A DNA stretch of 64,000 bases, from contig JAKFYJ010000043.1 of NCBI GenBank assembly GCA_021730935.1, positions 1-64,000 of the forward strand, given 5' to 3'. The translations under genes and the position numbers were made by a program. Below, in pieces: positions 37,867 to 51,342 of this stretch; positions within the stretch are counted from its first letter, which is position 1, and the number at the start of each line of letters is the position of its first letter. Source of the stretch: Elusimicrobiota bacterium. Its GTDB lineage: Bacteria > Elusimicrobiota > Elusimicrobia > 2-02-FULL-39-32. The notes under the pieces were generated by a model, which did no database searches, was not told the DNA's origin, and was given only the letters and a program-made list of their open reading frames with translations.

Positions 37867-38238
37867 TCATTTCCCGAGGGTAGAATCAATTTTTTTGGGG
37901 GCGAGCTTATAATCCTCCACCATCTTTCTGAACCGGGAATAAGAATAGGGGTCGAGATATTGGAATGTGGTTTTTTCCAACACACTCACGAGGGATTTCA
38001 GGGCTTCCCCCCTTGCCATCCACTGATAGTAATTTCTTCCGTCGTGAGTATAGGGCCCATAAAGCTTGGACCCGGGGACAAGATGGAGAAGCCAGGCGAA
38101 TATTTTATCATGCCGAACATGCATCCTGAGGGTTATTTGGGGCTGTTTGCCGTCCCCGCCAAAATGGCCATCTGTAATCAGAACACCTATGAGAAAACCA
38201 AGAGAAAACTCGTCAATTTGCATATTTATATGTTTCAC
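37867..38238 (-). CDS. Stand-alone LAGLIDADG-like endonuclease-family protein
   Basis: A 123-residue single-domain protein. The LAGLIDADG-type helix is FLIGVLITDGHFGG (residues 14-27, with the acidic Asp near its end), followed by the beta strands PQITLRMHVRHDK, then a helix and KLYGPYTHDGRNYYQWMARG, matching the half-domain fold of LAGLIDADG homing endonucleases. It is not embedded in an intron or intein: its neighbours folE and rhomboid are intact. The start could also be Met6. Flanking DNA looks AT-richer than its neighbourhood. Activity as a nuclease is not assured. Confidence 0.7.
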   Translation of the reverse strand: MKHINMQIDEFSLGFLIGVLITDGHFGGDGKQPQITLRMHVRHDKIFAWLLHLVPGSKLYGPYTHDGRNYYQWMARGEALKSLVSVLEKTTFQYLDPYSYSRFRKMVEDYKLAPKKIDSTLGK

Positions 38239-38963: not shown

Positions 38964-41393
38964 TTAGGAATCAGTCCTTACTTGGTGTTCTCGGAGGCGG
39001 GGAATTAAAAATCTAAATGCAGAACCTCTTCCGGGCTCGGACTCAACCCAGATCCTTCCACCATGCATTTCGACGATGGCTTTTGAAATCGCAAGTCCAA
39101 GTCCTGTGCCGCCAACTTTTCTTGTGAGAGAAGAGTCGACTTGATAGAACATGCTGAAAATTTTCTCCTGGTCTTCTTTCTTGATGCCGACGCCGCTGTC
39201 GACAACGCTGACGATGACGAAATCGCCGAGATCGTCAATGCTCATTTTTATGAATCCACCTTGTGGAACAAACTTCATGGCATTTGACAACAAATTTTCT
39301 ATGACTTGTTTCACCCGTGATTCATCTGCGGAGACGATGGGGATTTTCTTTTCGATTCGCAGTTCAAAATTAATTTGCTTCGACTCAATACTGGCGCGAT
39401 AGGTGTCAAAACACTCCTGGATAATTTTATCCATGGCGACAGGCTGCAAAATAATTTTGAGCTGACCTGACTCGATGCGGGAAACATCCAGAAGATCCGA
39501 GATGAGAAGCGAGAGGCGCTCAATGGAGTTGTGGGCGATACGCAAAAATTTTCTCTGCTGTTCATTGATGGGGCCCGCGTCTTCGCCGAGGACGACATCG
39601 ACAAAGCCCTTGATCGCGGTCACAGGCGTGCGGAGCTCGTGGGAAACCATAGAGACGAATTCGGTTTTCACCTGGTTGAGCCGTTCGAGCTCGCGGTTGG
39701 CCGCCATGACTTTTTCATAGAGCCGCGCGTTCTGAACGATGACGGCGCTCCGTTCCGCAAGCAGTTCTGCCACGCGGACATGATCGTCGTCGAAGAACCC
39801 TTCTTTCATGCTCGCGAACCGGAGAACGCCGATCATCTCCTCTTCGATTTTAAGCGGAACGAGCATCATGGATTTGAAAGTTCCCTTGGATGAGTTCAGA
39901 ATGCGGGATTTTTTTTCTATGAAAACAATGGTAGTCTCGTCTTCGTAATCGTCGATGCTGATGGGATCCTGATCTGAAGGGGGGTGCGCAACGAGGGCGG
40001 AAATGGTGGCCTCGTGCAGGAGAAAGTCACAGCGCTCACAGTTGAAGGTTTTGCTGATGACGCGGACAATTTTCGCGAGAATAAATTCAAGAACGGGGGT
40101 GGCGTAAAAAGTGTTGTTGACTTCCTGAAGGGCGGTGAGTTCCGCCATGCGTTTGCGGTTTTCCGTCTCAAGATCGGCGTATTCAAGCGCGTTGGCGATG
40201 CGGATCGCGACCAGCGTGAGCGTGCGCAAGTCTTCGTCTTTGAGTGCGATGGAATCCTCGCCATGCAGGGCGCTCGCCTCCTGAATCGGATTGGCAAGGA
40301 CCAGAACGCCTTTGGCCCCCTGAGGTGTTTTGAGCGGAGCCACGATCAAAGAGCGCAAAATAACTTTTGACGCATTTTGTAAAAATTCCTGATCCTTAAT
40401 ATAAGACTGAAGTTCATGGGACAACGAGAGGGGGCCGCCTTTGAAATGCTGGATCTCTCCGCTCTTGAAAGCTGAGACGACCGCGCGCAAAAATGGGCCG
40501 CCTGAGGTGTCGTCCGGAATGCGGATATTGTGTTTGGAATGAGGCAGTCCGAAAGAGGGATATTGAATTTCCAGAACCGGAGGGCGGCCCTTGGGGGAGA
40601 CATCGACGAAGAAAGCGACATATTCCGCGTTAAAAAATTCAGAGATTTTGGGGGAGACCGCCTCAAGGATATCGTGGAGGTTGGAATGCATGCTGGCCTG
40701 AAGCGTGATTTCATAAAGCGCTTTGAGTTCGCGCACATGGTGGATGAGCCGATCGTTGGTTTGGGTGAGCTCGCTCGTGGTGGCGGAAACCTCGGACGAG
40801 AGACGGCGGTTAAATTTTTCCATGAGCTCAATCAGCTGGACGTTCCGCATGCCGACGGAAAGGACTTGGAGATACGGTCGAAGGAGGTCAATGGTGCTTT
40901 TGACAAAAAATTTGCCGTCCGGCGCGGCGGCGACAAAGAGTCCGAGGTTCTGGCTTTGTAGGATGATGGGGGAGATCAAAAAACTTTCCCAGCCGCGGCC
41001 GCCGTCGAGTTTTTCCGTGTCCAGCACTTCTGAAAATTGGGAGCGGGTCAGAATGAGGCCCTGTCCGCTTGCGATGGCGCGGCCCAGAACCCCGTGGCCG
41101 AGGGGGATTGAAAGGCTGGAAACGAAGGATGCGGGGAAACCTTTGTGACAGCGGACGCGATAAGCCCGCTCATCTTCGAGTGTCAGGACGGCGCAGTCGA
41201 TGCTGAAGGATTCCCGAACGGCGGAAAGGAGATAGCTCAAAACCTGGTCTAGATCCTGATAATGCGTCATGCCCTGGGAAATCATGAGAAGGCGTTCCAC
41301 ATTTTTAGAATAGGGGATGCCGGGCCCGGACTCCGGCGGGCGGAGATTTATGAAATCAGACAGCACCGTTAAAAAATTTTGGATGGGTTTCAA
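38964..41393 (-). CDS. Soluble triple-GAF sensor histidine kinase
   Basis: An 809-residue protein without membrane helices. Three GAF-like domains (about 45-190, 230-405 and 425-560), with coiled coil between the first two, are followed by a HisKA domain with the phospho-His in VSMVSHELRTPVTAIKGF (about 590) and an HATPase domain with N box NLLSNAMKFVP, G1 DSGVGIKKEDQEKIF and G2 GGTGLGLAISKA. All catalytic boxes are intact. It senses unknown cytoplasmic cues and has no adjacent response regulator. Its start overlaps the stop of the DnaA-like gene by four bases (ATGA), tying it to the pilT/DnaA-like unit and, by position, to the microcompartment operon. Confidence 0.9.
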   Translation of the reverse strand: MKPIQNFLTVLSDFINLRPPESGPGIPYSKNVERLLMISQGMTHYQDLDQVLSYLLSAVRESFSIDCAVLTLEDERAYRVRCHKGFPASFVSSLSIPLGHGVLGRAIASGQGLILTRSQFSEVLDTEKLDGGRGWESFLISPIILQSQNLGLFVAAAPDGKFFVKSTIDLLRPYLQVLSVGMRNVQLIELMEKFNRRLSSEVSATTSELTQTNDRLIHHVRELKALYEITLQASMHSNLHDILEAVSPKISEFFNAEYVAFFVDVSPKGRPPVLEIQYPSFGLPHSKHNIRIPDDTSGGPFLRAVVSAFKSGEIQHFKGGPLSLSHELQSYIKDQEFLQNASKVILRSLIVAPLKTPQGAKGVLVLANPIQEASALHGEDSIALKDEDLRTLTLVAIRIANALEYADLETENRKRMAELTALQEVNNTFYATPVLEFILAKIVRVISKTFNCERCDFLLHEATISALVAHPPSDQDPISIDDYEDETTIVFIEKKSRILNSSKGTFKSMMLVPLKIEEEMIGVLRFASMKEGFFDDDHVRVAELLAERSAVIVQNARLYEKVMAANRELERLNQVKTEFVSMVSHELRTPVTAIKGFVDVVLGEDAGPINEQQRKFLRIAHNSIERLSLLISDLLDVSRIESGQLKIILQPVAMDKIIQECFDTYRASIESKQINFELRIEKKIPIVSADESRVKQVIENLLSNAMKFVPQGGFIKMSIDDLGDFVIVSVVDSGVGIKKEDQEKIFSMFYQVDSSLTRKVGGTGLGLAISKAIVEMHGGRIWVESEPGRGSAFRFLIPRLREHQVRTDS

Positions 41394-43441
41394 GTTTTTG
41401 GCGGGGTTTTCCCGCTGTCAGCGGCTGGGATCAGCAGGGAAAGATCCAGAGCGCAGTTTAAATATCGATAATCCTTGCCCATTTCGGACCAGGGGATGAA
41501 CTGGAGCGCAATCCGCTCCTCTTCAAGTGCCGCGGAAAGAAATCCCGCGAAATCGTCCTCGCTGAGCATGGGCGTCTGGGGCGGCCCCAGGACCAAAGCG
41601 ATGGAACATTTTTTATCGCGGCAGACTTTGGAGAAAAAGGTGTAATCAAGCTTGCCTTCATAATTGAAAGACTTTTCCGCAAGGCGGTTCAGGCGGAATT
41701 TGAGTTTATGTTTTTTCAGGATCAGCATGAATTTGGACCGGAGCGTTCTGTAATCCTCAATTTTTCCCGAAGGATAAAAGCAGACGACATCGACAGATTT
41801 CAGAGTCTGATCCACATCAGGATCGTCCGGGTCAGGAGTTTCGTCCGCCGCGGCTGAAGGCGCAGGGTCCGACCTGATTGCGACCGGCTCAGGGCTGGGC
41901 GGTTCAGGGGCTGGGGGTTCCGCTTTTTTTTGAGACACAGCTCTCGTCGCGATTTCGAAATCCTCATTTTCATCGATGGCCTGAGCCGCAACGGGAAGAA
42001 TTTTTTCCGAGACTGTCACAGGCGCAGGCGGGACCTCTTTCTCCGGAACCTTCGGAGGGGGGGGAGGAGGAGGCGGCGGGACCGGAGCAGGAGCAGGTTC
42101 CGGGACGAACGGCGTCGGCGGAGATATCGCTTCATTCAGGCGCTGCATGATATCTTCCAGCTCAGACGCTTTTTTCTTTTCCTCTTCCGGAGCCTTCTTC
42201 TTTTCGGACGCGGGCTCAGATTTGGGAGCGGGCGGAGGAACAGGAATAGCCGGCTCCTTGACCGCAGGTTCATGGGCCTGTTCCGGACTGTCGTCTTCCA
42301 TGACGCCTTTTAAGAGGGAAAGGTCCACCTTGGAATTCATGAGACTCGCGGTGGCATATATTTTTTTGACGATGCCTTCGAGCTCGCGGATGTTCGATTT
42401 TGATTTTTCGGCGACATACATGAGCTGTTCGTTGGTGAGGCTCAGATCGATCTGGTCCGACTTGCTCTTGAGGATGGCCACCCGCGTCTCAAGGTTGGGA
42501 GACTTCAAATCCGTGATCAGTCCCCATTCGAACCGCGAGCGCAGGCGGTCTTCGAGAGTGGAAAGCTGTTTCGGCGGACGGTCGGAGGTGATGACGATTT
42601 GTTTGCCGATTTGATGAAGGCTGTTGAAAACATGAAAAAATTCTTCCTGCGTGGACTCGGATCCGGACAAAAACTGGATGTCATCGATGAGGAGCAAGTC
42701 CAGGTGCCGGAACTGTTCGCGCAGAGGATTGATGTTGCCTCGGCGGATACCTTCAATGACCATGCTCATGAATTTTTCCGTCGATATAAAAATGACTTTG
42801 AGCTGGGGATTCTTGGCGAGGATGAAATTGCCGATCGCCTGCATGAGATGAGTTTTCCCGAGGCCCACGCCGCCGTAAATAAAGAAAGGGTTATAAATTT
42901 TCCCGGGATTTTCAGCCACAGCCTGGGCGGCCGCGTGTGTGAAACGGTTGTTGGGCCCCACGATAAAAGAATTGAAGCTATAGCTCGGGTTGAGCGGCGT
43001 GGAAATGGTTTCCTGAGCCTGAACGGAGGACAACGGCGCCGCAGAGGCGGAGACGGAAACCTTCTCTTGAACAACGGGTTCGGGTTTCGAAATTTCCGAC
43101 TTTGCAGGGGTTATGAAATTTTTTGCGGCCGTCTCCAGCATGTCTTCGAGCATGGGGGGCAATTCTTTTTCCACGTGAAGGGACGGGGAATCAATCAATG
43201 TCCCGTCCGCGCAGAAACCCGTGAAGACGTCGACAGCTTTCAGGCGTGCGATTTCGTCGAGTTTATAAAGATAAAAAGCCCAGTCATAATCCTGAGAAAG
43301 CGTGATGAAAGGCCGGCCGCATTCGACCGGGAGCTTTGAGATGAGTTCTTTGAGGTCTTCCTCGCTTCCCCGCACGCGGGCTTTGAAACGGAGAGAATCC
43401 TTCTCAAACGGAAAATGGGCGAGTTCCCACTTCTGGATCAT
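41390..43441 (-). CDS. DnaA-like AAA+ ATPase lacking the DNA-binding domain, with novel ends
   Basis: A 683-residue protein. Residues 1-110 are an unrecognised N-terminal domain, not DnaA domain I. Residues about 152-375 are a DnaA domain-III AAA+ module: Walker A GGVGLGKTHLM (190-200), Walker B LLLIDDIQFLSG (249-260), sensor 1 ITSDRPP, an arginine-rich RLRSRFEWGL and sensor 2 SNIRELEG (349-356). In place of the DnaA HTH domain IV is a long Pro/Glu/Lys-rich linker (about 385-545), then an unrecognised C-terminal domain of about 120 residues starting SVDVVCFYPSGK. It overlaps pilT (ATGA) in front and the GAF kinase behind. It is unlikely to be the replication initiator; role unknown. Confidence 0.85.
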   Translation of the reverse strand: MIQKWELAHFPFEKDSLRFKARVRGSEEDLKELISKLPVECGRPFITLSQDYDWAFYLYKLDEIARLKAVDVFTGFCADGTLIDSPSLHVEKELPPMLEDMLETAAKNFITPAKSEISKPEPVVQEKVSVSASAAPLSSVQAQETISTPLNPSYSFNSFIVGPNNRFTHAAAQAVAENPGKIYNPFFIYGGVGLGKTHLMQAIGNFILAKNPQLKVIFISTEKFMSMVIEGIRRGNINPLREQFRHLDLLLIDDIQFLSGSESTQEEFFHVFNSLHQIGKQIVITSDRPPKQLSTLEDRLRSRFEWGLITDLKSPNLETRVAILKSKSDQIDLSLTNEQLMYVAEKSKSNIRELEGIVKKIYATASLMNSKVDLSLLKGVMEDDSPEQAHEPAVKEPAIPVPPPAPKSEPASEKKKAPEEEKKKASELEDIMQRLNEAISPPTPFVPEPAPAPVPPPPPPPPPKVPEKEVPPAPVTVSEKILPVAAQAIDENEDFEIATRAVSQKKAEPPAPEPPSPEPVAIRSDPAPSAAADETPDPDDPDVDQTLKSVDVVCFYPSGKIEDYRTLRSKFMLILKKHKLKFRLNRLAEKSFNYEGKLDYTFFSKVCRDKKCSIALVLGPPQTPMLSEDDFAGFLSAALEEERIALQFIPWSEMGKDYRYLNCALDLSLLIPAADSGKTPPKT

Positions 43442-44517
43442 CCCAGGACACCGATGCCTCGAACTTTAAGGGTCAGGTCTTCAGGGTTCGTCGCGTTGGC
43501 GACGGCTTCTTCCATCGAAATCTTTTTTTCCTGTGCGAGGCGGATCAAATCCTGGTCAAAGGTGTGCATTTTGTAATACTCGCCCTGCTCAAGCGCCTTA
43601 TAAATGTCTTCCGGTTTGCCTTCAACAATGATTTTTTTTATCAATGAGGTGCCGATGAGCACTTCGGTCGCGGGCCAGCGGGTGGTGCCGTCCGCCGAAG
43701 GCAGGAGCCTTTGTGCGATGATGCCTTTGAGCACGCGGCTGATCTGGTTTCGGACCTGAGCCTGTTGATGCTGGGGATAAGCGTCCACGATGCGGTCGAT
43801 GGTGTGCACCGCATCCGAGGTGTGGATCGTGGAAATGACAAGGTGTCCGGTCTCTGCGGCAGTGATGGCGGCGGAGATGGCGTCATAGTCCCGCATCTCC
43901 CCGATCACAATCACGTCCGGATCCTGGCGAAGCGAATATTTCAGGGCGTTTTTATAGGATTCCGTGTCCGGACCGATTTCCCTCTGGACGATGGAAGATT
44001 TTTTGTCGGCATGGAAAAATTCTATCGGGTCTTCAACAGTTACGATCTGATAGGTGTAATTTTCGTTGATGTGATTGATGATGGAGTTGAGCGTGGTGGT
44101 TTTGCCCGAGCCCGTGATGCCGGCGATCAAAACAAGCCCGCGCTGTTCCCCTGCGAGCTTTTTCATGGTTTCAATGGGAAGATTAAGTTCTTCAAAATTT
44201 TTGACTTTGAGAGGCACCACTCGGAGCGTGAGAGCAAGGGTCCCGCGCTGGCGATAGATGTTTACGCGGAACCGGCTGAGACCGTCCACGGCATAAGACA
44301 AATCGATCTCGTGCTCCTTGTTGAACTTTGTTTTTTGATCGTCACTCAAGAGAGACAGGGCCATCTCGTTGATGGCGCGGGCATCCAGTTTGCCCAGGTC
44401 CGTGACCGTCAGGCTCCCATGGACGCGCAGAAGCGGGGGAGAACCCGCCTTAAAATGGATATCCGAAATTCCGGACTTGATCATCAGCTGAAGCAGTTCG
44501 TTGATCTTCATGGCCAT
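43438..44517 (-). CDS. pilT: PilT-like type IV pilus retraction ATPase
   Basis: A 359-residue secretion-superfamily ATPase. The N-terminal PAS-like domain contains MIKSGISDIHFKAGSPPLLR. Walker A is GITGSGKTTTLNS (133-145), the Asp box VTVEDPIEF, Walker B VIVIGEMRDYDAI and the His box GHLVISTIHTSDAVHTIDR follow. The C-terminal HTFDQDL of PilT is kept, while the AIRNLIRE motif is altered to SLIKKIIVEGK. It powers pilus retraction in well-studied relatives. No pilin or other pilus gene is near. It starts 1 nt after the last microcompartment gene, with AGAGG at good distance, and is coupled to the DnaA-like gene. Confidence 0.93.
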   Translation of the reverse strand: MAMKINELLQLMIKSGISDIHFKAGSPPLLRVHGSLTVTDLGKLDARAINEMALSLLSDDQKTKFNKEHEIDLSYAVDGLSRFRVNIYRQRGTLALTLRVVPLKVKNFEELNLPIETMKKLAGEQRGLVLIAGITGSGKTTTLNSIINHINENYTYQIVTVEDPIEFFHADKKSSIVQREIGPDTESYKNALKYSLRQDPDVIVIGEMRDYDAISAAITAAETGHLVISTIHTSDAVHTIDRIVDAYPQHQQAQVRNQISRVLKGIIAQRLLPSADGTTRWPATEVLIGTSLIKKIIVEGKPEDIYKALEQGEYYKMHTFDQDLIRLAQEKKISMEEAVANATNPEDLTLKVRGIGVLG

Positions 44518-44518
44518 G

Positions 44519-44764
44519 TTATTTTTCCTCTCGGACTATTTTTATGCCTTTCAATGACAGCCAATCCAGAGCCAGCGGGCTCACAATCGCGTTCCCCTGC
44601 ACTTTTAAAATTTTGTCCGGACCGATCATGCGCTTGATTTCATATTCCGACAAAAATTGCCGCCCTTTCCTTGAGGGCAGGGTTTTGCAGGGAACCGACT
44701 GTTCCGGGACGCTTTGTCTCAAGTGTTCCCATAAAATGTCCGCCAGATCATCGGCAATGGGCAT
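44519..44764 (-). CDS. Small BMC-associated protein with EutT-N-terminal-like motif
   Basis: An 81-residue protein. Its second half, FLSEYEIKRMI ... ILKVQGNAIVSPLALDWLSLKGIKIV, follows the pattern 'ITExD(L/V)R ... (V)xxGxxhTPxAxDxLxxxGI' seen at the N-terminus of EutT-like corrinoid adenosyltransferases and as a short module in other microcompartment proteins. No adenosyltransferase catalytic part is present. Its function is not known to me. The start overlaps the BMC-H stop (TGATG), and pilT begins 1 nt after its stop. Confidence 0.6.
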   Translation of the reverse strand: MPIADDLADILWEHLRQSVPEQSVPCKTLPSRKGRQFLSEYEIKRMIGPDKILKVQGNAIVSPLALDWLSLKGIKIVREEK

Positions 44765-45060
44765 CAGCTAAAAACGCTTTCCACCCGTTTCAGATATTTT
44801 TCGAGGTCATCGTGGGGCCTGGGGATCACGTGCACGCTCACCAGCTCGCCCACTCTCTGAGCGGCGGACGCCCCCGCCTCCACAGCGGCCCGCACGGCTC
44901 CCACTTCACCGCGGCAAAGCGTCGTGACCAGCCCCGAACCGACTTTTTCATATCCCAAAAGCCGCACTTTCGCGGATTTGGCCATCGCGTCCGAGGCTTC
45001 CAATGCCCCGATCAGACCTCTCGTTTCAATCATGCCCAACGCTTCAATATTTTCAGCCAT
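44764..45060 (-). CDS. Microcompartment shell protein, BMC-H (second copy)
   Basis: A 98-residue single BMC domain: [22 protein letters not shown] at the start, pore loop KVGSG (hexamer pore, Lys-Val-Gly-Ser-Gly), and [19 protein letters not shown] typical of the fold's second half. It forms hexameric tiles of the shell. The ATG at 45060 is preferred; an upstream GTG at 45069 would add MKS. The gene overlaps deoC by 8 bp and is highly similar to the other BMC-H at 49.6 kb, differing mainly in the C-terminal tail. Confidence 0.95.
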
Positions 45061-45829
45061 GCTTTTCACCGCCTCCCTGTCCGTCTGTTATGATCTGCAC
45101 TGAAGAAGACGCCCCGATCCGATCCGCTCCGGCCCGCACGAGCTCCTCCGCAAATTTTCTGTCCCTGATTCCTCCCGCCGCCTTGATCTTCATGCGGGGC
45201 CCCACCGCTTCGCGGATAACTTTCACGTCTTCAAGCGATGCGCCTCTCGAAGAAAATCCCGTGCTCGTCTTCACAAAATCGGCTCCGGACTCTTTCACAT
45301 AAAGCGACGCACGGACAATTTCTTCCTTCGTCAAAAGCGCCGTCTCAAGGATCACCTTCAAAATTTTTCCCTTCACCGCGTCCCGCACCGCGCGGATGTC
45401 GCGGCGGACTTTTTCATAGTCCTTCGATTTCAAGGCGCCGATGTTGATCACCATGTCGATCTCGTCCGCGCCCGCGCAAACCGCTTCCCGCGCTTCAAAC
45501 GCTTTGGATTCAGGAGTTCCCGCGCCCAAAGGGAACCCCGCAACGGAACAGATTTTGACTCCGCTCCCTTTGAGAAAACGGGCCGCGAAAGAGACATGGC
45601 AAGGGTTCACGCACACGGCCGCGAACTGATGCGCCCGGGCTTCCTCGCAGAGGCGCTGGATGTCCGACTGCGTCGCCTCCGGTTTCAGATTGGTGTGGTC
45701 GATTTTTCCGGCCAGTCCCTTTTCTTTTTCCGCGCACTCCTCACAGCACGGACGCTTTTTGATCTGGAACGGTTTCCAGGCGCCCGGCTCATTTTGAAAA
45801 ACTTTTCCCGCGGTTCCGATGCTCGTCAT
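45053..45829 (-). CDS. deoC: Deoxyribose-phosphate aldolase with Cys-rich N-terminal extension
   Basis: A 258-residue class I aldolase cleaving 2-deoxyribose-5-phosphate into acetaldehyde and glyceraldehyde-3-phosphate. Catalytic positions are visible: Asp in [13 protein letters not shown], Schiff-base Lys in [14 protein letters not shown] and the second Lys in [12 protein letters not shown]. Before the usual start ([17 protein letters not shown]) lie about 38 extra residues containing CCEEC (28-32). This extension could direct encapsulation or bind metal. In an SPU microcompartment this is the signature enzyme, making the volatile aldehyde to be contained. It overlaps BMC-P (TGATG) and BMC-H. 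Confidence 0.94.
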
Positions 45830-46125
45830 CAGTGATATTTTTTCTCCCGGCCTTCCGAACAGACGGAGTCCACGATCCCGCAGACCACCAGCCGGACGGG
45901 CGCTCCCTTGTCGTTCATGATCTGGCGCGCGGAAGACCCTTCGTCCAAAAGCAGGACCGTGTCTCCCGGGCCGGCCCCAAATTTGTTGTCCACCGCCATT
46001 TGCGTGTCGCCCACGGCCTTGCCGGTCATGCTTTCCAAAGCGCGGACAAGAAGCAGTTTGGATCCGGACAAATTTTTATGTTTCCGAGTCGCCCAAATAT
46101 TTCCAACCACGCGCGCGACCTGCAT
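45829..46125 (-). CDS. Microcompartment vertex protein, BMC-P (EutN/CcmL type), third copy
   Basis: A 98-residue pentameric vertex protein. It shows the typical start MQVARVVGNIWATRKHKNLSG, central LLLVRALES and AVDNKFGAGPGDTVLLLDEGSSARQI, and ends VVCGIVDSV. BMC-P pentamers cap the shell's vertices. The start at 46125 overlaps the preceding BMC-P stop by one base (TGATG) and the stop overlaps deoC the same way. Confidence 0.93.
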   Translation of the reverse strand: MQVARVVGNIWATRKHKNLSGSKLLLVRALESMTGKAVGDTQMAVDNKFGAGPGDTVLLLDEGSSARQIMNDKGAPVRLVVCGIVDSVCSEGREKKYH

Positions 46126-46421
46126 CAGGACTCCATCGTCCAGGCCTGCAAGTTCACTCCGTCCACAATGCCCACGATCGCCGCATCCACCGGGGGAGAA
46201 TCCGCGAGACCGGTTCCTCCCATGGCGACAGCCGCGTCCCGGGACGCCACCCAAAAAACAAATTCGCCTGACCCCGCGCCCACTGTGTCCACGGCCACGA
46301 TCGGATCTCCCTTGGGCGTTTTTTCCCAGGTCATGGGCTGAATCAAAAGGAGTCTTGCGGACTCCAAAGTCTCATATTTCCGGCTGGCCGTCACCCGGCC
46401 GACGACTAACGCGGCTTGCAC
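46125..46421 (-). CDS. Microcompartment vertex protein, BMC-P, second copy
   Basis: A 98-residue EutN/CcmL-type protein beginning VQAALVVGRVTASRKYETLES at a GTG start (46421), as no ATG fits. AAGGAG lies very close in front. It contains LLLIQPMTWEKTPKGDPIVA, VDTVGAGSGEFVFWVASRDAAVA and ends DAAIVGIVDGVNL. The segment after VFW diverges from the other copies (RDAAVAMGGTGL instead of GSSARQ). It overlaps rpiB by 16 bp. Confidence 0.9.
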   Translation of the reverse strand: MQAALVVGRVTASRKYETLESARLLLIQPMTWEKTPKGDPIVAVDTVGAGSGEFVFWVASRDAAVAMGGTGLADSPPVDAAIVGIVDGVNLQAWTMES

Positions 46422-46861
46422 AGCTCCTTTTCGAGCTTTGAAATTTTTCTGATCCTGCGCTGATGGCGCCCGCCCGCGAACGGCGTCTTGATCCAGGCCT
46501 TGATCATCTTCGGAAGCAATGAGGGTTTTATAAATCTGCCGGAGAGGCACAGAACATTCGCGCAATTGTGCTCTGAAGCCAATGACGCGGTTTTCACATT
46601 CCATACCACCGCCGCGCGGATGCCGGGAATTTTGTTCGCGGCGATGCTCATCCCGATGCCGGTGCCGCATATCAGAACTCCGCGGTCGGCTCGCCCCAAA
46701 GCGACGGCTTTCCCGACCTTCTTCGCATAATCCGGATAATCCGTGGACTCTTCCGATGTCGTCCCCATATCCACCACTTTGTGTCCCAGCTTTTGCAAAG
46801 CGTCGACAACAATTTTCTTGCTTTCAAAACCGCCGTGGTCGGAACCGATCGCGATCTTCAT
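46406..46861 (-). CDS. rpiB: Ribose-5-phosphate isomerase B family protein
   Basis: A 151-residue RpiB/LacAB-type isomerase: MKIAIGSDHGGFESKKIVV, the catalytic Cys in RGVLICGTGIGMSIAANKIPGIRAA, NANV-like HNCANVLCLSGR, and the end GGRHQRRIRKI. It interconverts aldose and ketose phosphates (ribose-5-P/ribulose-5-P or relatives). Its presence beside DeoC defines SPU microcompartments, where it may act on the sugar phosphate entering the pathway. The start at 46861 overlaps the BMC-T stop (ATGA). Confidence 0.94.
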   Translation of the reverse strand: MKIAIGSDHGGFESKKIVVDALQKLGHKVVDMGTTSEESTDYPDYAKKVGKAVALGRADRGVLICGTGIGMSIAANKIPGIRAAVVWNVKTASLASEHNCANVLCLSGRFIKPSLLPKMIKAWIKTPFAGGRHQRRIRKISKLEKELCKPR

Positions 46862-47412
46862 GAGTTCGTCAAAACTTTCAGGAGAGATTTGTGGGCGTAA
46901 GGGATGATCACCCACGAGATCAAAGACCCTTCTTTCTTTATGCTTTCAATGCCCGCCGTGACCGCGGCCCGGACAGAGCCCACTTCGCCGGTCAGAGTGA
47001 CATATCCTTTTCCGCCCGCGCCTTTGCCCGGAAAAACTTCGATCAGTTTTATGGCGGCCTTCTTGGCCGCGGCATCCGCCGCATAAATGGAGGCGGCCGC
47101 GTCTTTCGTCTCGATCACGCCCACGGCCTCAAGGTTCTCCACGGACTGCCGCGCGCGCATGGCGGGCAAAACGGAATCGTGCACGTTCTGGATGATGAAA
47201 TGTCCCAGGAGCCACGCGTCTGCGATCTGGACTCCGGCGGCGAGGGACTGCTCCACTTCCGCCTGTTCCCCTCCGATCAAGATGGTATATTTCCCGCGCG
47301 GAATCGCCTGCGTGTGCAGGAGCTCCACTTCCGCCATTTTCATCATGGCGTCCGCCGCCTCAATGCCCTTGGCGATGGATGAGAGTTCAATAAAACCGAT
47401 GGCCTGGCCCAT
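46858..47412 (-). CDS. Microcompartment shell protein, BMC-T (tandem domain)
   Basis: A 184-residue fusion of two BMC domains. The first runs from AIGFIELSSIAKGIEAADAM to about residue 88 with pore-side IPRGKY. The second starts NLEAVGVIETKDAAASIYAAD with pore-side PGKGAGGKG. Trimers of such proteins form pseudohexamers, often with a gated central pore for larger cofactors or metabolites. No Cys for an iron-sulfur cluster is in the pore loops, unlike PduT. Its start shares a base with the PilZ stop (TAATG). Confidence 0.94.
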   Translation of the reverse strand: MGQAIGFIELSSIAKGIEAADAMMKMAEVELLHTQAIPRGKYTILIGGEQAEVEQSLAAGVQIADAWLLGHFIIQNVHDSVLPAMRARQSVENLEAVGVIETKDAAASIYAADAAAKKAAIKLIEVFPGKGAGGKGYVTLTGEVGSVRAAVTAGIESIKKEGSLISWVIIPYAHKSLLKVLTNS

Positions 47413-47831
47413 TACTTTTTCTCCTTTTGAATCTGCTGTCGAAGCAGTTTGTCCTGCCGGACCCGCTCCTGCATTATAAATTTGTTGAGCTTGATGTGTT
47501 CCCGAAGGTCCGTCAGGTCCCGGATAAAAAATTCCAAGCCATAAATCGTCTGGCCTTTCCAGGGATAATTGTGGCGCACGACCGCGACCAGATTCATGTC
47601 CAGATCGGGGCTGAGTTTAAAGCTCATCTGCAGTTTGTCGCCGCGCTTAAACGCCGCGCCCGAAACCATGCGGAGCCCGCGGAGCGAGAGATCGAGCAAG
47701 TCGCCTTTGGCCGCGGCTTTCCCCGAGCGGACCACCTCGATCGGAGCGGACTCCATCACGCGGATATATTTCCGCCGCTCCAGCATGACGACCTGCCCTT
47801 TCGTCCTTATGAATTTCCTGCGCTCAATCAT
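47412..47831 (-). CDS. PilZ-domain protein embedded in the microcompartment operon
   Basis: A 139-residue PilZ protein with both parts of the c-di-GMP-binding signature: RKYIR (RxxxR, residues 20-24) and DLSLRG (DxSxxG, 47-52), followed by the beta-barrel strands (KLQMSFKLSPDLDMNLVAVV) and a C-terminal charged helix. A second RRKFIR copy sits at residues 4-9. The start at 47831 overlaps the aldehyde dehydrogenase stop (ATGA) and the stop shares a base with BMC-T (TAATG), so it is translated with shell and enzyme genes. It may link c-di-GMP to the compartment; no such role is established. Confidence 0.88.
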   Translation of the reverse strand: MIERRKFIRTKGQVVMLERRKYIRVMESAPIEVVRSGKAAAKGDLLDLSLRGLRMVSGAAFKRGDKLQMSFKLSPDLDMNLVAVVRHNYPWKGQTIYGLEFFIRDLTDLREHIKLNKFIMQERVRQDKLLRQQIQKEKK

Positions 47832-49240
47832 GCGATCCTCAAATATCCCACCATGGAACAATGGAGCGGACGGCTGAAATGCGTGGGTTTTGTGAGCCCG
47901 TCGCCCGTGGGCGTGCCGATGGACATGCTCGCAAACCCTTCGCCCATGCCCAGCCCCATATAGTTCGGGCCGTTCTTAACGAAAATCGAGCAAGCCATTT
48001 CGCGCGCGGCTTTCGTGATGTTTCCCACATGCATGGAATAAATGGATGCCGTATGATGGTTTCCGCCTTCAACTTCCTTTGCCAAAGCAATTGCCTTGTC
48101 TATGTCGGCCGCGCGGGTCACAGGCAAGACCGGCATGAGCTGTTCGATCCAGAGAAACGGATGAGTTTCAGGAACTTCGCCCCAGAGGAGCTTCACAGTT
48201 TCCGGAATTTCCAATCCGGCGGCCCGCGCGATCACGCCCGCATTTTTTCCGACGAACTCGCGGTTCAAAACCATCTCGCTTCCGGACTGCTTAAAAACGA
48301 TTTTCGCGAGCTGATCCATCTGTTCGCGCGACAATTCATGGGCCCTTTTATCTTTTCTCAGTTCAGCCAAAAACGCGTTCGCCGCCGATTCCGTCACAAT
48401 CACCTCTTTTTCTCCCGTGCACAAAACACAGTTGTCGAACGAAGCGCCGCTCACAATCCCGGAAGCGGCGACAGCCATTTCTGCCGTCTCATCCACGATC
48501 ACGGGGGGATTGCCGGGACCGGCGCAGATTGTCTTTCTGGGGATTCCGGCCGTCATGGCGATTTTCACGATCGCGGGGCCGCCCGTCACCAGAACCATGT
48601 CCACTTTGGGATGTTTCAGAAGCGCGACCGTGTTTTCCTGCGTGGCGGAAGCAAAGGTGGTGATCAAATTGGCCGGGCCGCCCGCCGACTGAACGGCTCG
48701 GTCCAATATTTTTATGGTTTCCTGGGAACAATTTTTCGCGGAGGGGTGCGGAGCGAAAACAACAGAGTTTCCGGCGGACAAAATTGAGATGGAATTGTTG
48801 ATGATCGTGGCGGTCGGATTCGTGGAAGGCGTCACGGCCGCGACCACGCCGAAAGGCGCCTGCTCGACGAGGGTCAATCCGTCGTCGCCCGTATAAGCTT
48901 TCGCCGGCTGAAGGTCTTCAACTCCGGGCGTTTTCCGGGACACCAAAATATTTTTTTTGATTTTATCTTCAACGCGGCCCATGCCGGTTTCCTGCTGCGC
49001 GAGCTTCGCGAGAGGCTCCGCGTTTTCAAGAGCCGCCTGACGCAGGGCTTCGATTATTTTTTTTCGCGCCGCGAGGCCGAGAGATTTAAAAACTTCCTGG
49101 GATTTGCGGGAGGCTTCAACCGCGTCGTTGACGGCGGGAAAAAACATGCCGGGCGCCTGGACCGGCTGGGGAGCTTTGGCTTCGAGGCGCTTTAAAACTT
49201 CCTGAACGAGGGACTGGACATCCTCTTCTCTGAGTTCCAT
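47828..49240 (-). CDS. CoA-acylating aldehyde dehydrogenase (PduP/EutE type) with encapsulation peptide
   Basis: A 470-residue enzyme oxidising acetaldehyde to acetyl-CoA. The N-terminal MELREEDVQSLVQEVLKRLE forms an amphipathic helix followed by a Pro-rich linker (AKAPQPVQAPG), the classic encapsulation peptide layout. The dehydrogenase core has PFGVVAAVTPSTNPTATI, GGPAIVKIAM, and the active-site region FDNCVLCTGEKEVIV, where Cys274 aligns with the catalytic residue of EutE/PduP (Cys271 is the extra). In this locus it would take acetaldehyde from DeoC. 3 bp separate it from BMC-P, and it overlaps PilZ. Confidence 0.94.
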   Translation of the reverse strand: MELREEDVQSLVQEVLKRLEAKAPQPVQAPGMFFPAVNDAVEASRKSQEVFKSLGLAARKKIIEALRQAALENAEPLAKLAQQETGMGRVEDKIKKNILVSRKTPGVEDLQPAKAYTGDDGLTLVEQAPFGVVAAVTPSTNPTATIINNSISILSAGNSVVFAPHPSAKNCSQETIKILDRAVQSAGGPANLITTFASATQENTVALLKHPKVDMVLVTGGPAIVKIAMTAGIPRKTICAGPGNPPVIVDETAEMAVAASGIVSGASFDNCVLCTGEKEVIVTESAANAFLAELRKDKRAHELSREQMDQLAKIVFKQSGSEMVLNREFVGKNAGVIARAAGLEIPETVKLLWGEVPETHPFLWIEQLMPVLPVTRAADIDKAIALAKEVEGGNHHTASIYSMHVGNITKAAREMACSIFVKNGPNYMGLGMGEGFASMSIGTPTGDGLTKPTHFSRPLHCSMVGYLRIA

Positions 49241-49243
49241 CCT

Positions 49244-49558
49244 CTATCCTCTTTTTCCGGCGAAGTCCTCGCTCTTTGAAAAAAGGATTTTGCCTTCCTT
49301 CTCAATATAATCCACAACGGCAAAAATGGAGCAGTCCACGGGGTTGCCTTCCGTCTGACGGGTCTGCCGCGCAGAAGAGCCCTGCACAATCAGCACCAGC
49401 TCGCCTTCTCCGGACCCAACCGCGTCCACTGACACGATCGGACTGCCTTTGGGCTGACCCTCAAGGTCCACCGGCTGGACCAGCATCAGTTTTGTGCCGA
49501 CGAGTTTTTCGTCTTTGCGCGTACAGACGACATTCCCGATGACTCGGGCGAAAAGCAT
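49244..49558 (-). CDS. Microcompartment vertex protein, BMC-P, first copy
   Basis: A 104-residue EutN/CcmL-type protein: MLFARVIGNVVCTRKDEKLVG, LMLVQPVDLEGQPKGSPIVSVD, AVGSGEGELVLIVQGSSARQT and a VDCSIFAVVDYIE end. It keeps the most canonical motif set of the three vertex paralogues. It lies between BMC-H (10 bp) and the aldehyde dehydrogenase. Confidence 0.95.
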   Translation of the reverse strand: MLFARVIGNVVCTRKDEKLVGTKLMLVQPVDLEGQPKGSPIVSVDAVGSGEGELVLIVQGSSARQTRQTEGNPVDCSIFAVVDYIEKEGKILFSKSEDFAGKRG

Positions 49559-49568
49559 TTTTTAATCC

Positions 49569-49868
49569 TTACCGCTTGCCCCGGTTCATGGTTTCAGGCA
49601 AAGAAATGGGCATCTTGCCTTCGAGGTCCGGATGAGGCTGAGGAATCACGTGGACCGCCACCAGCTCGCCCACTTTCTGGGCCGCCGCCGCGCCCGCGTC
49701 GCAAGCCGCTCTGCAGGCCGCAACTTCGCCGCGGAAAAGGACTGTCACCAGGCCTGAACCGATCTTTTCATAACCCACGATGCGGACATTCGCGGATTTG
49801 ACCGCCGCGTCTCCCGCCTCAATGAGCGACACCAAACCTCTCGTTTCAATCATGCCTAATGCTTCCAT
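49569..49868 (-). CDS. Microcompartment shell protein, BMC-H (first copy)
   Basis: A 99-residue single BMC domain: [22 protein letters not shown], pore loop [24 protein letters not shown], ending in a short Pro/Arg tail. It is the likely bulk hexameric shell tile as the first shell gene of the operon. AGGAGG precedes the ATG. Confidence 0.95.
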
Positions 49869-49884
49869 TATGCCTCCTTATGGT

Positions 49885-50511
49885 TCACAGCATCGTTCCT
49901 AAATCGCCGTTCTTCACTCCCAAAGCGTTGCCTTCGTCCGTGTCGAGATGGCATTCCAGTTTCATGTCGTCGCGCACGCGGCACAAAACATTGATCACGC
50001 CGTCCCGCGGAGGTTTTCCAACCTTTATTTTCACATACTCCATATTTTTTATGCCGAAAACTTCAGCTTCCTTCGTCTGAAAATGAATATGCCGCATCTG
50101 GACGATCGCGCCTTCTTCGAGGTGAACTTCGCCGGCGGGGCCGATCAGGGTGATGGGCGCAGACCCTTTGACATTCCCTGAATCGCGGACGGGAGCGTCG
50201 ATGCCGAGCGTCACGCAATCGGTGCGTGCCAATTCAATTTGGTTATAGGGCCGGAACGGGCCGATCAATCGCGCTTTTTTGATTTCGCCTTTGGGGCCTT
50301 TAAGGATGACGGTCTCTTTGCAGGCGAACTGGCCAGGCTGAATGAGGTCTCGAATGTTGGTGGGCTTGGCTCCAACGCCAAAAAGTTTTTCAAAAGTCTC
50401 CTGGGTGCAGTGCCAGTGACGGTTGGAGATGTTGACGATGATTGGTTTTGATTCCCGGTCCATTCTTTTTATGAGTTTCTGCGTGATCTCCCCGGCAAGA
50501 TCCTGAGACAT
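49885..50511 (-). CDS. pduL: Phosphate acetyltransferase PduL
   Basis: A 208-residue microcompartment phosphotransacylase that converts acetyl-CoA and phosphate to acetyl-phosphate and recycles CoA. The zinc-binding His residues are visible: NISNRHWHCTQ (His32, His34), VQMRHIHFQTKEAEVFGI (His141, His143) and KLECHLDTDEGNA (His188). The first motif is NRHWH where SxRHxH is usual. Two PduL beta-barrels fill the rest. The N-terminal SQDLAGEITQKLIKRM could serve as encapsulation helix. It comes second in the operon. Confidence 0.94.
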   Translation of the reverse strand: MSQDLAGEITQKLIKRMDRESKPIIVNISNRHWHCTQETFEKLFGVGAKPTNIRDLIQPGQFACKETVILKGPKGEIKKARLIGPFRPYNQIELARTDCVTLGIDAPVRDSGNVKGSAPITLIGPAGEVHLEEGAIVQMRHIHFQTKEAEVFGIKNMEYVKIKVGKPPRDGVINVLCRVRDDMKLECHLDTDEGNALGVKNGDLGTML

Positions 50512-50520
50512 GAGCGTCTG

Positions 50521-51342
50521 TTATGCTGCCTGATACGCCACGATCCTTGAGAAATCCGCCGCCTTGAGGGAAGCGCCGCCGACGAGTCCGCCGTCGATGT
50601 CGGGCTGGCTCATGAGAGAATCGATGTTGTCGGGTTTGACGGAACCGCCGTACAAAATTCTTGTTTTCTGCGCGAGAGGTTCATTATAAATCTGCGACAA
50701 AATCTTTCTGATGAACGCGTGCATTTCCTGCGCTTGAGCGGGGGAGGCGGTTTTGCCCGTGCCGATCGCCCAGACCGGCTCATAGGCGATGACAAGCTTC
50801 AAATAATCTTCTTTCACGAGGTTCGAGACCCCGTCCCTGATCTGCCGCTCCACGACTTTAAAATGGTTATTGGCCTCGCGCTCTTCCAAAGTCTCGCCCA
50901 CACAGACGATGGGGAACAGCCCGGCCTTGAGCGCGGCGTTCATCTTGTCATTGACGATTTTGTCCGTCTCGCCGAAATATTGCCGCCGTTCGGAATGCCC
51001 GATGATGACATATTTACAGCCCGCGGCCTTGATCATGGGTCCTGAAAGTTCGCCCGTGAAAGCGCCTTCATTGGCCCAGTGGAGGTTTTGAGCGCCCAGA
51101 CAAATATTGGTGCCCATGATAATCTCGGACACTTTTGTCAGGTTTATGGAAGGGGGACAAATCAGAATTTCGCGTCCGGAAACGCCCGCGACCAGCTGTT
51201 TCAATTCTTTGGCAAGAGCCTCAGATTCGGAAACGGTCTTATACATTTTCCAGTTCCCCGCCAAAAGCGGCGTTCTCTGAAGTGTGGATTTTTTTTCCAC
51301 ACCCTTTTCCCTCTCTGTCGGCTTCGCGGTTTGCTGTTCCAT
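50521..51342 (-). CDS. tpiA: Triosephosphate isomerase, first gene of the microcompartment operon
   Basis: A 273-residue enzyme interconverting glyceraldehyde-3-phosphate and dihydroxyacetone phosphate. Catalytic residues: Lys in [11 protein letters not shown], His in [14 protein letters not shown] and Glu in [17 protein letters not shown]. Phosphate loop [11 protein letters not shown] and GLVGGASL are present. An N-terminal extension of about 26 charged residues precedes the usual start ([17 protein letters not shown]). Placement 9 bp before pduL suggests a task with DeoC's glyceraldehyde-3-phosphate. A promoter lies just upstream. Confidence 0.95.

What the first reader, a model, noticed from the sequence alone, without database searches (positions are those of the whole stretch)
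41390..43441. DnaA-type AAA+ module with two unknown domains and no DNA-binding domain
Walker A/B, sensor 1 and sensor 2 are clearly DnaA-like, yet the HTH domain IV is absent and replaced by a Pro/Glu-rich linker of about 160 residues and a new C-terminal domain (from SVDVVCFYPSGK, about 120 residues). Domain I is also replaced. Short DnaA paralogues such as Hda and DiaA partners control initiation, but this architecture with pilT and a kinase is unusual. It could be a spatial organiser or a regulator of DnaA.
Basis: partly seen in the sequence, partly recalled or inferred. Interest (0 to 1): 0.76.

Follow-up and report, generated by a model that had tools for sequence, protein, structure and literature searches.

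The report
DnaA-derived ATPase switch of Elusimicrobiota
A second, DnaA-like protein in nearly every Elusimicrobiota lineage keeps the ATP-driven core of the bacterial replication initiator but has lost its known DNA-binding parts, gained two undescribed domains, and sits in an operon with a pilus-motor protein, a sensor kinase and nucleoside-sugar breakdown genes, which points to a signalling role rather than replication.

Summary
Window 41390-43441(-) encodes a 683-aa protein: an N-terminal domain (1-84), a DnaA-type AAA+ core (147-386), a 163-residue linker (26% Pro) and a C-terminal domain (552-672). It is a second gene: the genome also carries a normal dnaA with domains I and IV. It belongs to a family found in 245 of 341 Elusimicrobiota genomes, usually in one copy, and in 5 of 6 genomes of a small separate phylum. 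Its AAA+ domains split from all canonical DnaA with 100/99 support. The window protein keeps Walker A/B, sensor 1, arginine finger and sensor 2. It lacks domain IV, and every relative scored has lost the pore lysine (K243) that binds single-stranded DNA. The C-domain is predicted confidently (pLDDT 93) as a Rossmann-like fold, nearest Argonaute MID, with no Pfam match; the N-domain is unmatched and was found only at this locus. The usual context is TpiA-RpiB-(DeoC/microcompartment)-PilT-gene-kinase. This PilT is a distinct subtype that nearly always occurs together with the gene. Best explanation (inference, about 0.4): an ATP-dependent scaffold or switch linking two-component signalling and pentose/nucleoside metabolism to a PilT-type motor. 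A regulator of DnaA is possible but less likely.

The parts
41390..43441 (-). DnaA-type AAA+ paralogue, 683 aa
   Evidence: ORF; Bac_DnaA 2.6e-68; family in relatives; phylum-wide
43190..43441 (-). N-terminal domain, residues 1-84 (invariant W5; predicted b-b-a-b-a-b)
   Evidence: alignments A2/A3; model (pLDDT about 88 over the first 80 residues); no PDB fold match below E 1e-3; found only at this locus
42284..43003 (-). AAA+ domain (DnaA domain III type), residues 147-386; catalytic residues kept, K243/R245 equivalents changed to Ser
   Evidence: tree
41795..42283 (-). Pro/Glu-rich linker, residues 387-549
41426..41788 (-). C-terminal Rossmann-like domain, residues 552-672
   Evidence: alignments; model (pLDDT 92.8, pTM 0.86); Foldseek; profile search
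43438..44517 (-). PilT-family ATPase of a distinct subtype; overlaps the AAA+ gene by 4 nt; lacks the AIRNLIRE motif
   Evidence: TIGR01420 442 bits; motif table; co-occurrence
38964..41393 (-). Histidine kinase with three GAF domains; overlaps the end of the AAA+ gene by 4 nt
   Evidence: Pfam; conserved directly downstream in 32 of 49 loci
45053..45829 (-). DeoC (deoxyribose-phosphate aldolase), operon context
   Evidence: 45-62% matches to DeoC of relatives; NCBIfam deoC on the L111 homologue
44764..45069 (-). Microcompartment shell protein, operon context
   Evidence: conserved next to DeoC; identity as a shell protein assigned by eye from sequence
46406..46915 (-). RpiB (ribose-5-phosphate isomerase B), operon context
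   Evidence: PF02502 9.5e-58
47828..49240 (-). Aldehyde dehydrogenase of the SPU-type microcompartment, operon context
   Evidence: PF00171

Best explanation
The protein is a DnaA-derived ATP switch and scaffold, not an initiator. SHOWN by sequence: an intact ATPase/oligomerisation core in the window protein, loss of domain IV and of the ssDNA-contacting pore residues, two lineage-specific domains on flexible tethers, and 4-nt gene overlaps with a PilT-subtype ATPase upstream and a GAF histidine kinase downstream. INFERRED: ATP binding drives DnaA-like head-to-tail assembly of the AAA+ core; the N- and C-domains, which also occur in AAA+-less partner proteins of the same operons, recruit those partners and the motor or kinase; the Rossmann-like C-domain may read a small phosphorylated ligand or a phosphorylation state. 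The module would couple two-component signalling and pentose/nucleoside catabolic state to a PilT-type motor (type IV pilus activity). Where catalysis has decayed (Elusimicrobiaceae and several other families) only the ATP-binding scaffold role would remain.
For: Catalytic residues kept but K243 and R245 equivalents lost (roles of V211, K243 and R245 in ssDNA binding: PMC8235120, PMC5835720). The family separates from all canonical DnaA at 100/99. Of 69 genomes with the operon-type PilT, 64 have the C-domain by profile and one more (G014) has a divergent copy; near-complete genomes without the gene (G007, G008, G010, G019, G026) have only other PilT paralogues (at most 46% identity); G011 and G020, whose operon lacks PilT, keep this PilT subtype elsewhere (56%). 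Kinase directly downstream in 32 of 49 loci, two response regulators there in the separate phylum. N-domain found only in this gene and the genes next to it. C-domain homologues in neighbouring partner genes.
Against: Families f10 and f14 have the gene without the PilT subtype, and the separate phylum has it without PilT in the operon, so PilT is not obligatory. f10 also lacks the adjacent kinase. No interaction, whole-protein structure, or expression data. Conserved gene order can outlive function. Co-occurrence counts are not corrected for shared ancestry.
Confidence: 0.4

Rival explanations
1. Hda-like regulator of DnaA: it co-oligomerises with DnaA through the AAA+ interface and stimulates or blocks DnaA-ATP turnover, tying replication to nucleoside/pentose supply.
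For: Full AAA+ interface with arginine finger, sensor 1 and sensor 2 in the window protein; same AAA+ clade as DnaA; operon of pentose and nucleoside metabolism.
Against: Far below the Hda model cut-off (110 vs 194.8 bits); no clamp-binding motif near the N-terminus in any of 67 relatives, where E. coli Hda has QLSLP at position 6; arginine finger and sensors lost in f8, f9, f10, f13 and f14 although the gene is kept; its neighbours are not replication genes.
Confidence: 0.15
2. DNA uptake or processing factor: the operon scavenges DNA (pilus motor, RecJ, nucleoside phosphorylases, DeoB, DeoC, microcompartment) and this AAA+ protein handles incoming DNA.
For: RecJ, PunA, PyNP, DeoB and DeoC in the same operon; RecJ directly follows the gene in G238, G239 and CG1_37_114; DeoC/RpiB (SPU) microcompartments are proposed to break down nucleic acid (PMC8217296); the C-domain fold resembles Argonaute MID.
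Against: DnaA's ssDNA residues and domain IV are lost; DeoC is absent from G011, G013 and G020, which have the gene, and present in G007 and G008, which lack it.
Confidence: 0.15
3. Regulator, sensor or positioning factor of the pentose/nucleoside pathway and its microcompartment itself, with PilT only a passenger.
For: TpiA upstream in 31 of 34 loci and RpiB in 34 of 40 with enough flank; TpiA-RpiB-gene is shared with the separate phylum; f10 keeps TpiA-DeoC-gene only.
Against: Many holders have no microcompartment (shell gene in 17 of 42 loci); f14 holders have no metabolic genes nearby; no DNA-binding domain, so not a direct transcription factor.
Confidence: 0.2
4. Ordinary second DnaA or decaying duplicate.
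For: It just passes the NCBI DnaA equivalog cut-off (348.8 vs 343.9 bits), so automatic annotation may call it DnaA.
Against: No domain I or IV; a canonical dnaA is present; deep separate clade; preserved across a phylum with conserved extra domains.
Confidence: 0.03

Closest known systems
DnaA (chromosomal replication initiator)
   Same: AAA+ domain III with Walker A/B, sensor 1, arginine finger and sensor 2
   Different: No domain I, no domain IV, pore K243/R245 equivalents replaced, two new domains, separate clade, different operon
Hda (DnaA regulatory inactivator)
   Same: DnaA-type AAA+ without domain IV; arginine finger present in the window protein
   Different: 683 vs 233 aa; no clamp-binding motif; extra N- and C-domains; below Hda model cut-off
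Argonaute MID domain (fold only)
   Same: C-domain topology; best Foldseek hits, E 2e-4, TM up to 0.64
   Different: No sequence-profile match; also resembles lumazine synthase, PTS IIB and binding-protein lobes, so fold kinship only; conservation of the 5'-phosphate residues was not tested on an alignment
PilT/PilU retraction ATPases (the upstream gene)
   Same: PilT family model, Walker and Asp/His-box regions kept
   Different: C-terminal AIRNLIRE motif altered in every operon copy seen, as it is absent in PilU (PMC6762196)
SPU-type bacterial microcompartment loci
   Same: DeoC and RpiB with shell genes and aldehyde dehydrogenase upstream in this window
   Different: The published catalog's main text has no mention of Elusimicrobia, PilT or DnaA; the AAA+ gene also occurs without shell genes

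Membership tests
DnaA initiator | AAA+ domain III with Walker A/B, sensor 1, arginine finger, sensor 2 | tested here: met
   window row: K178, T179, D235, D236, D269, R281, R285 and R334 equivalents all kept
DnaA initiator | Domain IV helix-turn-helix (PF08299) for DnaA boxes | tested here: not met
   absent; present in the genome's real DnaA
DnaA initiator | Domain I (PF11638) | tested here: not met
   absent; present in the real DnaA
DnaA initiator | ssDNA-contact residues of the central pore (V211, K243, R245) | tested here: not met
   I, S, S in the window; K243 lost in every family member scored, kept in all 17 canonical Elusimicrobiota DnaA listed
Hda | N-terminal clamp-binding motif | tested here: not met
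Hda | Curated model cut-off (TIGR03420) | tested here: not met
   110 vs 194.8 bits
Hda | Stimulates DnaA-ATP hydrolysis | not testable with these tools
   needs biochemistry
Argonaute MID | MID-like Rossmann fold | tested here: inconclusive
   E 2e-4, TM 0.55-0.64, other Rossmann folds close behind
Argonaute MID | Sequence-profile similarity | tested here: not met
   no hit
Argonaute MID | 5'-phosphate binding residues | not tested
   no residue-level structural alignment available; by eye from memory they look replaced
Receiver domain (C-domain) | PF00072 match | tested here: not met
PilT (neighbour 43438-44517) | TIGR01420 above cut-off | tested here: met
   442 vs 319.1 bits
PilT (neighbour 43438-44517) | AIRNLIRE motif | tested here: not met
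   SLIKKIIVEGK; other PilT paralogues such as G000_C1b (VRNLIREGK) and G327_C8 (AIRNLIREMK) are close to the motif

The most novel reading that the evidence does not exclude
The initiator ATPase of bacterial replication was co-opted, before the Elusimicrobiota and a small separate phylum diverged, into a DNA-free ATP-switchable signalling scaffold with its own two domain types, which drives or gates a dedicated PilT-subtype motor in response to a two-component input and nucleoside-sugar metabolism.
Probability: 0.3. Interest if true: 0.82.

Novelty: new variant of a known kind. Interest (0 to 1): 0.64.

Why it matters
DnaA-clade AAA+ proteins are known from replication initiation and its control (own knowledge). 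A phylum-wide relative that has shed its DNA-contacting parts and lives with a pilus motor and a kinase would show this machine reused for signalling. It also warns that a 'DnaA' call in Elusimicrobiota genomes can be wrong: the window protein passes the curated DnaA cut-off. It gives two uncharacterised domains, one with a confident fold, and a concrete gene set to test in Elusimicrobium minutum, which has a complete genome (recognised here by its 1,643,562-bp contig, from memory).

Tried and rejected
Foldseek of the N-domain gave nothing below E 1e-3. Profile searches of both domains against PDB sequences and Pfam gave only chance hits. DeoC or the microcompartment as the obligatory partner was rejected: DeoC is absent from several holders and present in several non-holders. 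PilT as an obligatory partner was rejected: f10 and f14 lack the subtype. A clamp-binding motif was sought and not found near the N-terminus; pattern hits in other members lie mostly in the AAA+ core. Literature on Elusimicrobiota with DnaA, with PilT, and on DnaA paralogues without domain IV gave no description of this protein. An E. coli genome could not be used as a search centre, so unrelated phyla were only covered by the two-motif scan of genome contigs.

Full report
What is there. Window 41390-43441 on the minus strand is a 683-codon ORF. Pfam recognises only the DnaA ATPase domain (residues 150-311) and generic AAA models. NCBIfam's DnaA equivalog is just passed (348.8 vs 343.9 bits) but over profile positions 56-343 of 437 only. 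The genome carries a second Bac_DnaA gene on the same contig, and that one has domains I and IV, so the window gene is a paralogue and not the initiator.

Family. Protein searches found it in the genus, family and class. A profile of the C-domain finds it in 245 of 341 genomes of the phylum (151 of 192 good ones), nearly always once; most of the non-holders are one block of handles, G246-G322, whose two listed members belong to family f21. Record titles from a scan of about 85,000 species name Elusimicrobia and Endomicrobia, plus three MAGs titled Clostridia or 'bacterium'. The latter belong to a phylum of which six genomes are held; five have the gene, and the three of these checked each also carry a second DnaA-type protein. 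That scan used two exact peptide patterns, so distant members in other phyla could be missed. AAA+ domains of the family and of canonical DnaA, including E. coli and the separate phylum, fall on opposite sides of a branch with 100/99 support, after leaving out the most diverged members; with those and Hda included, long branches blur the picture.

Anatomy. Residues 1-84: an N-domain with an invariant Trp5, predicted b-b-a-b-a-b (about pLDDT 88 over the first 80 residues), no fold match, no Pfam or PDB sequence match; all its hits in 60 relatives lie in this gene or beside it. Residues 147-386: AAA+. Residues 387-549: linker with 26% Pro. Residues 552-672: C-domain, confident model (pLDDT 92.8, pTM 0.86), alternating b-a four times. 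Its best structural neighbours are Argonaute MID domains (E 2e-4, TM 0.55-0.64), with lumazine synthase, PTS IIB and a binding-protein lobe also among the top 50. I read this as a Rossmann-like fold; kinship with MID is not claimed.

What the AAA+ core can and cannot do. Aligned to E. coli DnaA, the window protein keeps the Walker A Lys/Thr, both Walker B Asp, the sensor 1 Asp, Arg281/Arg285 and the sensor 2 Arg. The pore residues that hold single-stranded DNA in DnaA (V211, K243, R245; PMC8235120 and PMC5835720) are I, S and S. K243 is replaced in every family member scored and kept in all 17 canonical Elusimicrobiota DnaA. Several families (f8, f9, f10, f13, f14) have also lost sensor 1, the arginine finger and sensor 2 while keeping Walker A and B, so ATP binding is the common denominator and stimulated hydrolysis is not.

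Neighbourhood. In the window PilT overlaps the start and a GAF histidine kinase the end of the gene by 4 nt. Across 49 loci (chosen for spread, not random) TpiA lies upstream in 31 of 34, RpiB in 34 of 40, DeoC in 29 of 41 and PilT in 29 of 45 with enough flank; the kinase is directly downstream in 32 of 49, and two response regulators take that place in the separate phylum. In locus L111 the operon runs on through DeoB, PunA, PyNP and RecJ. In the window the upstream part is an SPU-type microcompartment set (DeoC, RpiB, aldehyde dehydrogenase, shell genes), a type proposed to break down nucleic-acid sugars (PMC8217296). Many loci also carry, between PilT and this gene, AAA+-less proteins with an N-domain and/or a C-domain-like end.

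Which neighbour matters. The operon PilT is a recognisable subtype (53-68% identity to the window's, against at most about 50% for other paralogues). Its AIRNLIRE motif is altered in every operon copy, as it is absent in PilU (PMC6762196). Of 69 genomes with this PilT, 64 have the C-domain by profile, G014 has a divergent copy, and G032, G215, G233 and G237 have none; three of those four are under 80% complete. Two genomes whose operon lacks PilT keep it elsewhere (G011, G020), which is linkage-independent. Near-complete genomes without the gene (G007, G008, G010, G019, G026) lack this PilT. The converse fails: f10 and f14 have the gene without it. DeoC does not track the gene. These counts are not corrected for shared ancestry.

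Mechanism. I favour an ATP-switchable scaffold in a signalling module acting on a PilT-type motor, at about 0.4; the steps beyond sequence (oligomerisation, recruitment, ligand sensing, motor control) are inference. A role in the nucleoside/pentose pathway itself (0.2), an Hda-like role (0.15) and DNA processing (0.15) remain open. No published description was found in the held library.

Limits. Only public MAGs and one complete genome were compared; gene names of neighbours rest on profile matches or sequence similarity; structures are single-domain predictions.

Noticed in passing
window 44500-50600: SPU-type microcompartment locus (TpiA, PduL-like, shell genes, aldehyde dehydrogenase, RpiB, DeoC) directly upstream of the PilT-AAA+-kinase genes.
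   Followed up: partly
window 43438-44517: The PilT here is a separate subtype lacking the AIRNLIRE motif; the genome has three other PilT-family genes on contig C1 above the model cut-off.
   Followed up: partly
window 37867-38238: Small ORF with a weak LAGLIDADG_3 match (E 0.07) between folE and the rhomboid gene, conserved at 70-75% identity in two sister genomes (L033, L035).
   Followed up: no
L051:9137-9898: A C-domain on its own behind a hydrophobic N-terminus and a charged stretch, away from the main locus in G020.
   Followed up: no
L048, L061, L062, L072, L050 (between PilT and the AAA+ gene): Partner proteins share a short N-terminal motif like 'ILSDLDAILSDL' before a long Pro-rich stretch and a C-domain-like end; function unknown.
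   Followed up: no
G051:C1:84750-85771: A PilT-family match in the 1,643,562-bp genome (E. minutum by size) is split over two overlapping frames, possibly a broken gene.
   Followed up: no
L120, L123, L126: MAGs titled 'Clostridia' or 'bacterium' belong to a phylum of which only six genomes are held and carry TpiA-RpiB-AAA+ gene-two response regulators-transketolase; the titles are probably misleading.
   Followed up: partly
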